From: Enchytraeus crypticus
Lineage: Eukaryota; Annelida; Clitellata; Enchytraeida; Enchytraeidae
Direction of reading: 5' to 3'
Assembly (NCBI GenBank): GCA_905160935.1
Contig: CAJHZI010000576.1
Location: 1,352,001 to 1,416,000, forward strand
Length of the DNA stretch: 64,000 bases
In this document: positions 163-52,942 of the stretch, piece after piece
How the letters are laid out: each line of letters begins with the position of its first letter
How positions within the stretch are numbered: position 1 is the stretch's first letter
Notes under the pieces: generated by a model
What the model was told of the DNA's origin: nothing
The model's database searches: none
Seen by the model: the letters and a program-made list of their open reading frames with translations, nothing else
Translations under genes and position numbers: made by a program

Positions 163-272
163 ACGTACTGTTTAACAGCGAGGTCGCTATTAGGTCGTAT
201 ATCAGTGAGAGAGGTCTACTGTACTTACTGTTTAACAGCGAGGTCGCTATGAGGTCGTATATCAGTGAGTGT
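163..272. repeat. 60-bp tandem duplication of VPS13 exon 35 donor
   Basis: The forward blocks at about 168-212 and 228-272 match over about 43 bases with 2-3 mismatches (both start CTGTTTAACAGCGAGG). On the minus strand each carries the exon end and a GT donor (GTAAGT at 228, GTACGT at 168). Use of the distal donor would read through a stop (CAG TAA), so the proximal one is preferred. Confidence 0.9.
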
Positions 273-398
273 GAGATAATCAAGACTAATCTTGATCTCG
301 CTCGGCCCTGATGTGTCCAGCTTGCCCTCTAGCACCATTCTACCAACAGTCAGCCGGGCCAAACTCTCTCCCTCTTCTACGGCTGCAGGAGGCGAGGG
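229..398 (-). CDS. VPS13: VPS13 exon 35 (last in window)
   Basis: Encodes [20 protein letters not shown], then [12 protein letters not shown], matching the family strand L-A-x-F-x-(L/M)-x-x-(I/L) and D-D-x-R-P. Donor GTAAGT at 228, phase 2. A 60-bp direct repeat of the last 30-odd exonic bases plus the donor lies just beyond. Confidence 0.92.
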
Positions 399-51400: not shown

Positions 51401-52804
51401 ACCACGCTGAGTGCTACAGTCCTGACGACAACAGATTTGACCACAGGCAGTTCCTCTACAACGCCTTCTGGACCTGGCAGTTCCGCTGTATCGACCAGCA
51501 GGTGTGATCACTATCTACCAGCCAATCAATCAATCAATTAGTGTATCAATTAGTCGGTCATTCGATCAACCATGCAATCAGACAATTAATCAATCAATTA
51601 GCCAGTCTATTAGTCAAACAGTCCATCAACCATGCAATCAGACTATCAATCAATCAATCAATCAGTTAGCCTATCTATTAATCTATCAGTCGATCAGCCA
51701 GGCAATCATACTGTCAATTAATCAATTAGCCTATCTGTTATCTATCAGTCGATCTGCCATGCAATCATACTATCAATTAATCAGTTAGCCACACTGTTAG
51801 TCTCTCGGTCGACCAGTCATGCAATCAGAGAATATATAAATCGATCAGTGTGTGTCAATCGATTAAGTCATTATACTTATAGCATTGATATCATTAACAT
51901 AAAGCTTTTTACTTGTAGCACTTCTTCTCACCTTTATATATCAATGTTCTTATATCATTACTTTTTATTTGTATATATCACTGTACTTGTTTACTACATT
52001 ACAACGTAGAAACATGATACTGTCACTTAGAATCGTTGCTGATCATTTAATCTATTGTGTTGCTTAGAACGAAGTCTCAGGTGAACTTGTTGCACTTATG
52101 TTCTTATCTCATCGTCACTTATACCCTTGATCTCATCTTCATATATCATCACATGTGTACAGGTAAAGCTTCTCTCTGAGAGAAACCACAGGTCATCAGA
52201 CAGCAGACCTGACCTCAGCAGAACTCCTGACAAGAACGACATCGACAAGCCTGACCCTGCCTCACACAACAACGCCACAGAGAACACTTCATCATCGTCG
52301 TCCTCTAGCTCGCAGGCTGGCTCGTCACCCAACAGGCGTGGTGGTCTGGGTGTTGTGGTGAGCTGTGAGGTGCTAGTGACCAAGTGTGGACCACCTGGTA
52401 GTGTAACGTCAGTGTCGCTGTCAGCTGATGACAAGAGTGACGTGTTGGGATGTGAACCAGTGGACGCCAGTGTGGCGGGATCGATTAGTTCTACTACCGG
52501 CGGGCAGTTAGTTCCAGGTGCTGGGCCGAATTTCGCTGATGTGTGTACTGAATCAGCTTATCCATCTGCTAGCAACATTTTTCCGTCGGTGTCGTTGTTG
52601 GATGATGATAGCAAGGCCATGACGAGGTGTGAGCTGATAGGTATGAACGAGGTGATGAGGGAGACAAGGAAAGGAGCGGCAGGTAATGGGTCAGCCCGTG
52701 TGGATTCTGCGTTCATTTCCTCATCTGATACCAGGGACCTTCCTGGGCTGAGCTCAGAGTGGAAGACGTTGAGATCTAGGGTTGAGTTACTGAGCCCTGC
52801 TTGA
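45341..52804 (+). CDS. NADSYN1: Glutamine-dependent NAD+ synthetase (NADSYN1), synthetase half, 9 exons
   Basis: NADSYN1 makes NAD+ from nicotinic acid adenine dinucleotide with ATP and glutamine, the last step of the de novo and Preiss-Handler routes, in the cytosol. Visible: the PP-loop ATP-binding motif [81 protein letters not shown] and [13 protein letters not shown], all in family order. Nine exons (1,714 nt, 570 residues plus stop) join with consistent phase. The first visible exon begins in mid-codon at [13 protein letters not shown], about residue 340 of a normal protein, so the N-terminal nitrilase-type glutaminase and the true start are missing. The C terminus carries about 200 residues not found in vertebrate orthologues. 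Introns are dominated by tandem repeats. Confidence 0.96.
45493..45627. repeat. (GT)n-rich tract starting at the exon a donor
   Basis: GTGTGTGTGTGCGAGTG units with GCGAC interruptions; the first GT is the splice donor. Confidence 0.92.
45779..45980. repeat. NADSYN1: 102-bp tandem duplication of NADSYN1 exon b acceptor and 5' end
   Basis: TTTTAATGCTCAGTGTTGTC starts at about 45780 and again 102 bp later. Both units hold an acceptor (TTATTTAG at 45811-45818, TTGTTTAG at 45913-45920) plus TQTLEDV(R/Q)[10 protein letters not shown]. Either acceptor gives the right phase after exon a, and the frame is open through both. Confidence 0.95.
45921..46089 (+). CDS. NADSYN1: NADSYN1 exon b
   Basis: Encodes [40 protein letters not shown], ending KQIG. 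I prefer the acceptor at 45919-45920; using the upstream duplicate at 45818 would add 34 in-frame residues. Donor GTCTGT, phase 2. Confidence 0.92.
46315..47052. repeat. 18/36-bp minisatellite in NADSYN1 intron
   Basis: About 38 units of GATGAATTGATTGATTGT and variants, stopping 8 bp before the exon c acceptor (CTGTTCTCAG). Confidence 0.93.
47061..47196 (+). CDS. NADSYN1: NADSYN1 exon c
   Basis: Encodes [20 protein letters not shown], then [18 protein letters not shown]. Phase 2 to 0; donor GTGTTA. Confidence 0.96.
47206..47463 (+). repeat. SINE-B copy 2, (ATT)n-tailed
   Basis: Best-preserved copy: TCTCAATAGCGCAATGGTTA, GTGGGTTCGAATCGC, ending in (TTA)n. Starts 10 bp after the NADSYN1 exon c donor. 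Confidence 0.9.
47512..47662 (-). mobile_element. LINE-GA fragment
   Basis: Plus strand: TAGTGCACTTCCTAGCGGCA through TTTTCATCTCTATATATGAA. Inside a NADSYN1 intron. Confidence 0.75.
47676..48348. repeat. 12-bp minisatellite in NADSYN1 intron
   Basis: About 55 copies of TGATAACACTTG with variants. Because the unit is 12 bp, long spurious frames stay open on both strands. It ends about 24 bp before the exon d acceptor. Confidence 0.95.
48372..48478 (+). CDS. NADSYN1: NADSYN1 exon d
   Basis: Encodes [20 protein letters not shown] then [12 protein letters not shown], the adenylate-binding core. Acceptor GCACACAG, donor GTGTCT, phase 2. Confidence 0.97.
48715..49125 (+). mobile_element. LINE-GA 3' end followed by GA-tail repeat
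   Basis: GACATGAAAAGGAAACGTAC, GGACCTGCCTGTAGGCAGTG, (GA)n at 48893-48914, then a GA-tail repeat body (GAAAGCAGACTCTTGG, CTTGGCCTTGCCGCTTAG). Either two nested insertions or a composite. Confidence 0.72.
49138..49501. repeat. NADSYN1: 24-bp minisatellite ending in NADSYN1 exon e acceptor
   Basis: About 15 units of TTGTTATTTCTTGTCTACAA+CATA. The last unit changes CTACAA to CTACAG and is the acceptor of exon e; the array thus consists of polypyrimidine-tract/acceptor copies with the AG lost. Confidence 0.95.
49502..49633 (+). CDS. NADSYN1: NADSYN1 exon e
   Basis: Encodes [40 protein letters not shown]. The donor GTATGT at 49634 begins a (GTGT/TATGTGTG)n tract that runs to 49736. Phase 2. Confidence 0.97.
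49634..49736. repeat. (TATGTGTG)n tract starting at exon e donor
   Basis: GTATGTGTGCGCTTATGTGT and variants; the first two bases are the splice donor. Confidence 0.9.
50073..50142 (+). CDS. NADSYN1: NADSYN1 exon f
   Basis: A 70-nt exon: [23 protein letters not shown]. Acceptor TTGGTGCAG, donor GTCGCT. Phase 2 to 0. Confidence 0.96.
50330..50712. repeat. (GATT)n-type repeat before exon g
   Basis: GATTGATTGATT with TTATTTATT inserts, running to within 8 bp of the exon g acceptor CGGTAG. Confidence 0.9.
50720..50848 (+). CDS. NADSYN1: NADSYN1 exon g
   Basis: 43 codons: [30 protein letters not shown]. Matches the family D-M-G-M-T-Y and C/K-x-G-P-Y-S-M-F motifs. Phase 0. Confidence 0.97.
50878..51008 (+). 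repeat. SINE-A copy 11
   Basis: In the NADSYN1 intron after exon g. GGAGCCAGTGGCGTTGTCGG, B box GAGTCCAAATCCTGGGC, tail GTTAGTCTTAGCTTTA. Confidence 0.88.
51005..51280. repeat. 36-bp minisatellite in NADSYN1 intron
   Basis: About 7 copies of CAGATTTAGTTTGTAATGAT then TTAGACCTCTATCTAT, directly following SINE-A copy 11. Confidence 0.93.
51325..51501 (+). CDS. NADSYN1: NADSYN1 exon h
   Basis: 59 codons: [54 protein letters not shown]. Contains the HKMTxLTPxYHAE motif. Phase 0. Confidence 0.98.
51505..51840. repeat. (CAAT)n-rich repeat after exon h donor
   Basis: Degenerate CAATCAATCAATTAG and CAATCATACTATCAATTAAT units beginning about 25 bp after the donor. Confidence 0.88.
52163..52804 (+). 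CDS. NADSYN1: NADSYN1 exon i: last exon with long C-terminal extension
   Basis: Begins [20 protein letters not shown] after acceptor TGTGTACAG, in phase. Vertebrate orthologues end within about 16 residues of this junction; here the frame continues for 213 residues to TGA at 52802, with a Ser run (about 10 of 11 residues), an Asp/Ser-rich middle (SLSADDKSD) and a basic/Ser end. No domain recognised; probably disordered. Exonic GC is clearly above intron GC, supporting coding. Confidence 0.88.
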   Translation, partial: VKLLSERNHRSSDSRPDLSRTPDKNDIDKPDPASHNNATENTSSSSSSSSQAGSSPNRRGGLGVVVSCEVLVTKCGPPGSVTSVSLSADDKSDVLGCEPVDASVAGSISSTTGGQLVPGAGPNFADVCTESAYPSASNIFPSVSLLDDDSKAMTRCELIGMNEVMRETRKGAAGNGSARVDSAFISSSDTRDLPGLSSEWKTLRSRVELLSPA

Positions 52805-52942
52805 GATCCAGGGTTGAAGTACTGAGCCCTGCTTGAGATCTAGGGTTGAGTTACTGAGCCCTGCTTGAGATCTAGGGTTGAGTTACTGAGCCCTGCTTGA
52901 GATCTAGGGTTGAGTTACTGAGCCCTGCTTAAAGTCTAGGTC
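52766..52942. repeat. NADSYN1: 32-bp minisatellite spanning the NADSYN1 stop codon
   Basis: Five units of GATCTAGGGTTGAGTTACTG then AGCCCTGCTTGA. The first lies in coding sequence and ends in the TGA stop; the others are in the 3' UTR. Confidence 0.93.

What the first reader, a model, noticed from the sequence alone, without database searches (positions are those of the whole stretch)
163..52942. Tandem repeats systematically seeded at exon-intron junctions
At six junctions (VPS13 exon 35 donor, exon 34 donor, exon 5 acceptor; NADSYN1 exons a, b and e acceptors) the splice site, in most cases with adjacent exon bases, is copied 2 to about 15 times in tandem. In addition, simple repeats begin exactly at two NADSYN1 donors (45493, 49634) or stop 8-25 bp from acceptors (47061, 48372, 50720). 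Unit lengths of 24, 60, 69 and 102 bp are multiples of three. If common genome-wide, this suggests a mutational process linked to splice junctions or to transcription/R-loops, and a steady supply of alternative splice sites. The clustering is direct observation; the mechanism is inference.
Basis: partly seen in the sequence, partly recalled or inferred. Interest (0 to 1): 0.75.

Follow-up and report, generated by a model that had tools for sequence, protein, structure and literature searches.

The report
Splice junctions copied by tandem repeats
In the genes sampled from this unnamed animal genome about one exon edge in ten is copied in tandem into the neighbouring intron, an oddity already known from lancelets as 'mirages', and the edges look more like places where repeats stop than places that attract them.

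Summary
VPS13 (36 exons) and NADSYN1 give 88 junctions. All six named junctions carry tandem copies, though at NADSYN1 exon e only 1 of 14 copies keeps an AG. The multiple-of-three remark fails.

It recurs elsewhere in the 524-Mb assembly: of 107 junctions in kinesin, myosin, ABC and kinase genes, 10 are covered by an array and 20 are covered or within 25 bp.

Array edges pile up at junctions (10 within 25 bp, 2.4 expected, P=0.0006). Array presence hardly does: 17% of VPS13 junctions against 13% of intron-interior points, 50% against 57% for NADSYN1, 19% against 17-28% elsewhere. So junctions mainly act as boundaries that stop arrays. Targeted birth is not excluded: two-copy duplications cluster, and arrays thin out deeper in introns. 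Arrays are as dense outside the two gene models as in VPS13 introns, which does not support an R-loop cause.

Known kind: amphioxus 'mirages' (PMC3087553, PMC3902484, passages). New here: frequency counts and the edge-against-occupancy test.

The parts
184..298 (-). 60-bp tandem duplication (x1.8) over the VPS13 exon 36 donor (exon edge 229); about 40 exon bases plus gtaagtac are copied; ends approximate
   Evidence: read; not called by TRF; copy score 3.1 vs 4.6
1201..1425 (-). 121-123-bp tandem duplication (x1.9) over the VPS13 exon 35 donor (1405), 21 exon bases; the unit also holds part of a dispersed SINE-like repeat
11028..11345 (-).
24149..24258 (-).
34284..34639 (-). 23-bp array x15.5 over the VPS13 exon 5 acceptor (34286) with 3 exon bases; 6 of 15 copies keep AG
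45172..45357 (+). 69/70-bp array x2.6 over the NADSYN1 exon a acceptor (45341) with 17 exon bases
45493..45624 (+). GT repeat starting at the NADSYN1 exon a donor
45776..45975 (+). 102-bp duplication x2.0 over the NADSYN1 exon b acceptor (45921) with 55 exon bases; the upstream copy is open and in frame
46327..47050 (+). 20/36-bp array ending 11 bp before the NADSYN1 exon c acceptor (47061)
47678..48354 (+). 12-bp array x57 ending 18 bp before the NADSYN1 exon d acceptor (48372)
49140..49500 (+). 24-bp array x15 running to the NADSYN1 exon e acceptor (49502); 1 of 14 upstream copies keeps AG
49634..49729 (+). 22-bp/GT-rich array starting at the NADSYN1 exon e donor
50447..50713 (+). GATT-type array ending 7 bp before the NADSYN1 exon g acceptor (50720)
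52769..52930 (+). 32-bp array x5.1 containing the last NADSYN1 codons and the stop codon (52802-52804): not a splice site
229..38441 (-). VPS13 (VPS13A/C type), exons 1-36 of a longer gene that continues outside the window
   Evidence: downstream exons
45341..52804 (+). NADSYN1 3' half, exons a-i; its 5' exons are on contig C129, not in the window

Best explanation
This animal genome makes and expands tandem repeats (mostly units of about 10-120 bp) at a high rate in introns and outside genes. Duplications fall on splice junctions about as often as on other intronic positions, so about one junction in ten in the genes sampled is copied together with some exon bases. Such a copy is tolerated because the copy still joined to the exon body keeps working. 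Exon and splice-site constraint then freezes that last copy and stops the array there, while the intronic copies drift and homogenise. Array ends therefore pile up at junctions and look 'seeded' there. Shown: the arrays, their frequency, the edge pile-up and the lack of a clear occupancy excess. Inferred: tolerance, freezing of the last copy, and use of only the exon-proximal site.
For: Edge pile-up without a clear occupancy excess. In other genes facing edges at 0-25 bp are 4.1 times the 101-400 bp density (95% bootstrap by locus 1.6-8.2, 37 loci; 10 vs 2.4, P=0.0006), yet junctions in or within 25 bp of an array are 20 of 107 (19%), against 17-28% of points 100-400 bp inside the introns. In the window the figures are 12 of 70 (17%) vs 13% for VPS13 and 8 of 16 (50%) vs 57% for NADSYN1 (no test made). 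Junction-centred 24-mer duplication is below the intron background (4 of 88 vs 12.7 expected). Arrays of three or more copies are explained by free placement (8 of 16 vs 5.3-6.8, P=0.08-0.34). Arrays are as dense outside the two gene models (1.18/kb) as in VPS13 introns (1.16/kb). Arrays near junctions are no more diverged than others (median 86% vs 88% match, n=17 and 20, P=1.0). A stop codon is covered by an array in the same way.
Against: Two-to-three-copy duplications, too young for freezing to matter, already cluster: 8 of 18 vs 2.8 (P=0.003) to 5.1 (P=0.08) by null. Over all arrays a residual excess stays under the freest null (20 vs 14.7, P=0.048). Exon-penetrating arrays in 97 other junctions are about twice the count expected at intronic edge density (9 vs 4.6), although selection should thin them. 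Coverage falls with distance into the intron, which a uniform process does not predict: in the window 26% at 26-100 bp, 21% at 101-200, 18.5% at 201-400, 12% at 401-600; in other genes about 27% at 75-200 bp and 15% at 400 bp, the last figure being biased low by short introns. NADSYN1 introns are denser in arrays (2.02/kb). Repeats were only partly masked (15% of the window).
Confidence: 0.55

Rival explanations
1. Junction-targeted birth: short tandem duplications arise preferentially at or near exon-intron boundaries (through a compositional step, non-B DNA, R-loop or co-transcriptional conflict) and then expand.
Against: No clear occupancy excess at junctions; array density is similar outside the two gene models; a stop codon is hit too; repeats with units under 10 bp show no significant excess (3 of 12).
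Confidence: 0.25
2. Differential turnover: transposon insertion and deletion rework intron interiors, so repeats are seen mainly near exons.
For: Recognised dispersed repeats are 3% of DNA 1-25 bp from window junctions and 22% at 101-400 bp; array coverage falls with depth into the intron.
Against: The recognised repeats explain at most about 1.3-fold; arrays near junctions are not older; masking a first set of repeats (12% of the window) leaves 20 observed vs 6.7-11.5 expected.
Confidence: 0.1
3. Functional arrays: copies are kept as spare or alternative splice sites.
For: Many copies keep site scores equal to the working site (for example 7 of the 9 intact copies at exon 26). Upstream use at NADSYN1 a (+69 nt) and b (+102 nt) and of the one intact AG in e would be in frame and open (ORFs).
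Against: 13 of 14 e copies and 9 of 15 exon 5 copies have no AG; downstream donor copies at VPS13 exons 36 and 35 would run into a stop after 1 and 7 added codons (read); unit lengths are not confined to multiples of three; no RNA data.
Confidence: 0.04
4. Assembly artefact.
For: The window itself has a suspicious join at about 43166.
Against: Similar arrays occur in other genes on other contigs, and the junction arrays of the window have diverged copies (82-96% match). Contig C129 carries the NADSYN1 arrays without gaps, though possibly from the same reads. PMC3902484 reports that re-examined and new reads upheld a comparable amphioxus case (passages).
Confidence: 0.04

Closest known systems
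[quoted passage not shown] PMC3087553 and PMC3902484, passages seen)
   Same: Tandem copies span 5' or 3' splice sites with exon bases; unit sizes overlap (10-160 bp there, 19-123 bp at the window junctions); many but not all copies keep AG/GT; copies 81-100% identical in BflGb6 there, 82-96% match here.
   Different: Reported in those passages for single genes; here counted in a sample of junctions from unrelated genes, with a control. Length polymorphism and regular splicing were shown there, not here.
[quoted passage not shown]
   Same: A duplication crosses an intron-exon boundary and carries splice signals.
   Different: There a new intron is spliced inside the duplicate; here no new intron is evident from the gene models, and transcripts were not available.
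Microsatellites at splice sites (TG at donors, TC in polypyrimidine tracts; recalled)
   Same: GT-rich repeats start at donors 45493 and 49634.
   Different: Most arrays near junctions here have units of 10 bp or more; shorter units show no significant excess (3 of 12).

Membership tests
Mirage (intron-exon boundary minisatellite) | Tandem units span an exon-intron boundary, with intronic and exonic bases | tested here: met
Mirage (intron-exon boundary minisatellite) | Both 5' and 3' boundaries can be duplicated | tested here: met
   Window: donors of VPS13 exons 26, 35, 36; acceptors of exons 5, 12 and NADSYN1 a, b, e. Independent set: 7 of 54 acceptors and 3 of 53 donors covered
Mirage (intron-exon boundary minisatellite) | Many, not all, copies keep AG/GT signals | tested here: met
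   for example 6 of 15, 9 of 15, 1 of 14, 4 of 6
Mirage (intron-exon boundary minisatellite) | Copy-number polymorphism or somatic instability | tested here: inconclusive
   No second allele found: C129 and C483 are 99.95% identical without gaps over 21.7 kb. Two kinesin paralogues share a 41-bp unit at 3.8 and 18.7 copies
Mirage (intron-exon boundary minisatellite) | mRNA is spliced normally despite the copies | not testable with these tools
   No RNA data
Intron gain by tandem duplication | A new intron is spliced between duplicate copies within a former exon | not tested
   No related genome or transcript available
Transcription/R-loop-driven repeat birth at junctions | Arrays more frequent in transcribed introns than outside genes | tested here: inconclusive
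   1.16 per kb in VPS13 introns and 1.18 outside the two gene models, but 2.02 in NADSYN1 introns; the outside stretch (17.8 kb) was not searched for further genes
Transcription/R-loop-driven repeat birth at junctions | Junctions lie in or near arrays more often than intronic points | tested here: not met
   (VPS13 alone 17% vs 13%, not tested for significance)

The most novel reading that the evidence does not exclude
Splice junctions are true hot spots for the birth of short tandem duplications in this lineage. A boundary-linked mutational process copies roughly a tenth of exon edges into introns, giving a standing stock of spare splice sites and in-frame exon extensions. The clustering of two-copy duplications at junctions and the fall of array coverage with distance from exons are its signatures.
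Probability: 0.25. Interest if true: 0.8.

Novelty: new member of a known kind. Interest (0 to 1): 0.45.

Why it matters
If about a tenth of splice junctions in an animal genome sit inside or against tandem arrays, splicing must pick the right site among near-identical copies in a great many genes, and copy-number change would keep offering alternative splice sites and raw material for intron gain. That is a natural test of what, beyond the local site sequence, selects a splice site. The edge-against-occupancy contrast is also a caution: repeat ends can pile up at functional borders through constraint alone and should not be read at once as targeted mutation.

Tried and rejected
Multiples of three as a rule: rejected (junction units of 19, 23, 28, 46, 53 and 100 bp as well as 24, 60, 69 and 102).

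Simple uniform-in-intron null: it gives a strong signal (20 vs 4.0) but assumes arrays never enter exons. I kept it as a test of edges and added point-occupancy and free-placement nulls, which remove most of the signal.

Age survivorship: arrays near junctions are not more diverged. Transposon dilution: recognised repeats explain at most about 1.3-fold.

Second haplotype: C129:1-21696 proved a gap-free near-identical copy of window 64861-43166, so it gave no allele comparison; the C122 and C400 kinesins proved paralogues, not alleles.

Naming the organism: the COX1 search did not complete; an exact SINE-like pattern found nothing in viral contigs.

Rows dropped: myosin, 30 of 81 matches had loci cut; 6 of those 30 were left out for stops inside the match, and 7 of the remaining 48 sides for no site or domain start, leaving 41 junctions. 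Kinesin, 11 stretches chosen for compactness out of 128 matches; exon pairs with a missing exon were skipped; 1 of 29 refined introns was dropped as weak (L045) and one other weak intron (L053) was kept, leaving 56 junctions. ABC and kinase, 3 stretches; the first L058 intron was dropped, leaving 10 junctions. L056 and L057 (kinesin) gave no usable intron. The NADSYN1 5' half (19 new junctions) is not in the pooled 107. After the report check I lowered the best explanation from 0.60 to 0.55 and raised targeted birth from 0.22 to 0.25, because the fall of array coverage with distance had been left out.
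Full report
What is there. The window is animal DNA from an assembly of 524,188,772 bp in 802 contigs (G000:C483:1352001-1416000). The minus strand carries VPS13. The plus strand carries the last nine exons of NADSYN1, open throughout and matching human NADSYN1 6ofb. Together they give 88 junctions, 44 donors and 44 acceptors.

The named junctions. Tandem Repeats Finder and direct reading confirm all six. 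Two-copy cases are VPS13 exon 36 donor (60 bp), exon 35 donor (121-123 bp, including part of a dispersed SINE-like repeat) and NADSYN1 exon b (102 bp); exon a has 2.6 copies. Many-copy cases are exon 5 acceptor (23 bp x15.5) and exon e (24 bp x15). That makes 8 of 88 junctions copied: 6 by TRF, exon 36 donor by eye, and exon e, whose array ends 1 bp short of the exon. Not every copy is a splice site: AG survives in 6 of 15 copies at exon 5 and 1 of 14 at exon e, GT in 9 of 15 at exon 26. Where it survives, the score is often that of the working site. The row for the C129:24458 acceptor used too short a period (82 instead of 100) and should be disregarded; that copy keeps its AG.

Frame of the copies. 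Downstream donor copies at exons 36 and 35 would read into a stop after 1 and 7 added codons (read). Upstream acceptor copies at NADSYN1 a (+69 nt) and b (+102 nt), and the one intact AG in e, lie in open frames (ORFs 45255-45644, 45737-46141 and 49119-49748), so in-frame extension is possible there. No RNA data were available.

Is it common? Acceptors at C129:24458 (100 bp x2) and 23475 (46 bp x6.9) are inside arrays; a 28-bp x5.8 array that carries the same acceptor and exon bases ends 43 bp from the acceptor at 22062; arrays start 6 and 7 bp after donors 25353 and 21941. I then took exons of other gene families by Pfam search of the assembly and refined junctions by frame and splice-site score: 41 myosin junctions, 56 kinesin junctions and 10 from ABC and kinase genes. 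Of these 107, 10 are covered by an array and 20 are covered or within 25 bp; 15 of 37 loci have at least one. The kinesin stretches were chosen for compactness, and some sites have weak scores and may be misplaced by tens of bases.

Edges against occupancy. Two questions must be kept apart. (a) Do array ends lie near junctions? Yes. In the window 20 of 49 arrays cover or end within 25 bp of a junction, against 4.0 (arrays kept inside introns), 7.1 (25 bp of exon allowed) or 9.7 (50 bp allowed, P=0.001), and 6.7-11.5 after masking a first set of repeats. In the 107 independent junctions, facing edges at 0-25 bp are 10 against 2.4 expected from the 101-400 bp density (P=0.0006; ratio 4.1, bootstrap 1.6-8.2). 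(b) Do junctions lie in or near arrays more often than other intronic points? Not clearly. VPS13 12 of 70 (17%) against 13%, NADSYN1 8 of 16 (50%) against 57% (no test made); independent genes 19% against 17-28% at 100-400 bp (the lower figures, at 300-400 bp, are biased low because some introns are shorter). Strictly junction-centred duplication is below the intron background (4 of 88 against 12.7 expected). Dropping arrays with any overlap of the intron gives 14.7 +- 2.8 near or covering against 20 observed (P=0.048).

Reading. The two results fit together if arrays fall more or less anywhere and junctions stop them. The copy attached to the exon body is held by selection, intronic copies drift and homogenise, and the detectable array ends at or just before the junction. 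Coverage in the independent genes climbs from 9% at the junction to about 27% by 75-100 bp, as expected of a barrier. The stop codon inside an array shows that the effect is not special to splicing. Array density outside the two gene models equals that in VPS13 introns (1.18 and 1.16 per kb), though NADSYN1 introns are denser (2.02 per kb), so transcription is not needed but not excluded.

What speaks for targeted birth. Two-to-three-copy duplications already cluster (8 of 18; expected 2.8 with P=0.003, 3.7-3.8 with P=0.015-0.016, or 5.1 with P=0.08, by null). Arrays of three or more copies are 8 of 16 against 2.6-3.5 (P=0.001-0.008) but 5.3-6.8 under free placement (P=0.08-0.34). Coverage also falls with depth into the intron: 26% at 26-100 bp, 21% at 101-200, 18.5% at 201-400 and 12% at 401-600 in the window, and about 27% to 15% from 75-200 to 400 bp in the other genes. 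Near-junction arrays are not older, and recognised transposons dilute intron interiors by at most about 1.3-fold. I put targeted birth at 0.25. The window result is also in-sample: the hypothesis came from the same sequence.

Known or new. [quoted passage not shown] PMC3087553 reports length instability, copies with and without AG/GT, and regular splicing. A boundary-crossing duplication that made a new intron is described in potato (PMC4974935, abstract). Passages of PMC12783039 (earthworm intron minisatellites) and PMC4039745 (nematode minisatellites and alternative splicing) did not describe copied junctions. In the held library, the listings showed no title or abstract start on a genome-wide frequency of such structures; I saw only the listings, abstracts and passages named here. 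I file it as a new member of a known kind, with frequency counts and an edge-against-occupancy test as the new parts.

Noticed in passing
window 43166-45340: NADSYN1 lacks its 5' half in the window. Contig C129:1-21696 equals window 64861-43166 reversed (99.95%, no gaps), then continues into the missing NADSYN1 exons. The join of VPS13 and NADSYN1 at a (TA)n/Tc1-like element looks like a chimeric assembly join or a real duplication.
   Followed up: partly
window 43726-44755: Tc1/mariner-type transposase reading in two overlapping frames beside the suspicious join (ORFs; Pfam HTH_Tnp_Tc3_2 on the first).
   Followed up: no
L046 and L050 (contigs C405 and C617): Two kinesin paralogues whose introns gave no alignment share the same 41-bp junction array at the same acceptor, 3.8 and 18.7 copies: an old inherited array or gene conversion.
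   Followed up: partly
window 45776-45975: In the 102-bp duplication at NADSYN1 exon b the exonic part differs at 9 of 59 bases, mainly third codon positions, the intronic part at 1 of 43 (counted by eye). The upstream copy may have been translated, or a patch was converted.
   Followed up: no
window 52769-52930: 32-bp x5.1 array containing the NADSYN1 stop codon and the last codons.
   Followed up: partly
C483:1325605-1325859 (L014): A predicted further VPS13 exon ends in a near-repeat of its own donor region (NEVRESLISYT / NEVRGSLIRYT): probably another copied donor.
   Followed up: no
L056 (C122) and L057 (C400): A 52-bp x2 array overlaps the start of a kinesin exon match in L056, and a 26-bp x7.4 array ends just before a block conserved between the two loci, probably an exon, in L057; not counted in the pooled set.
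   Followed up: no
window, for example 2568-2698, 22439-22580, 50876-51017: Abundant dispersed SINE-like repeats, and ORF fragments such as 1679-2023 minus that resemble retroelement remnants (resemblance recalled; Pfam found none in that ORF).
   Followed up: no
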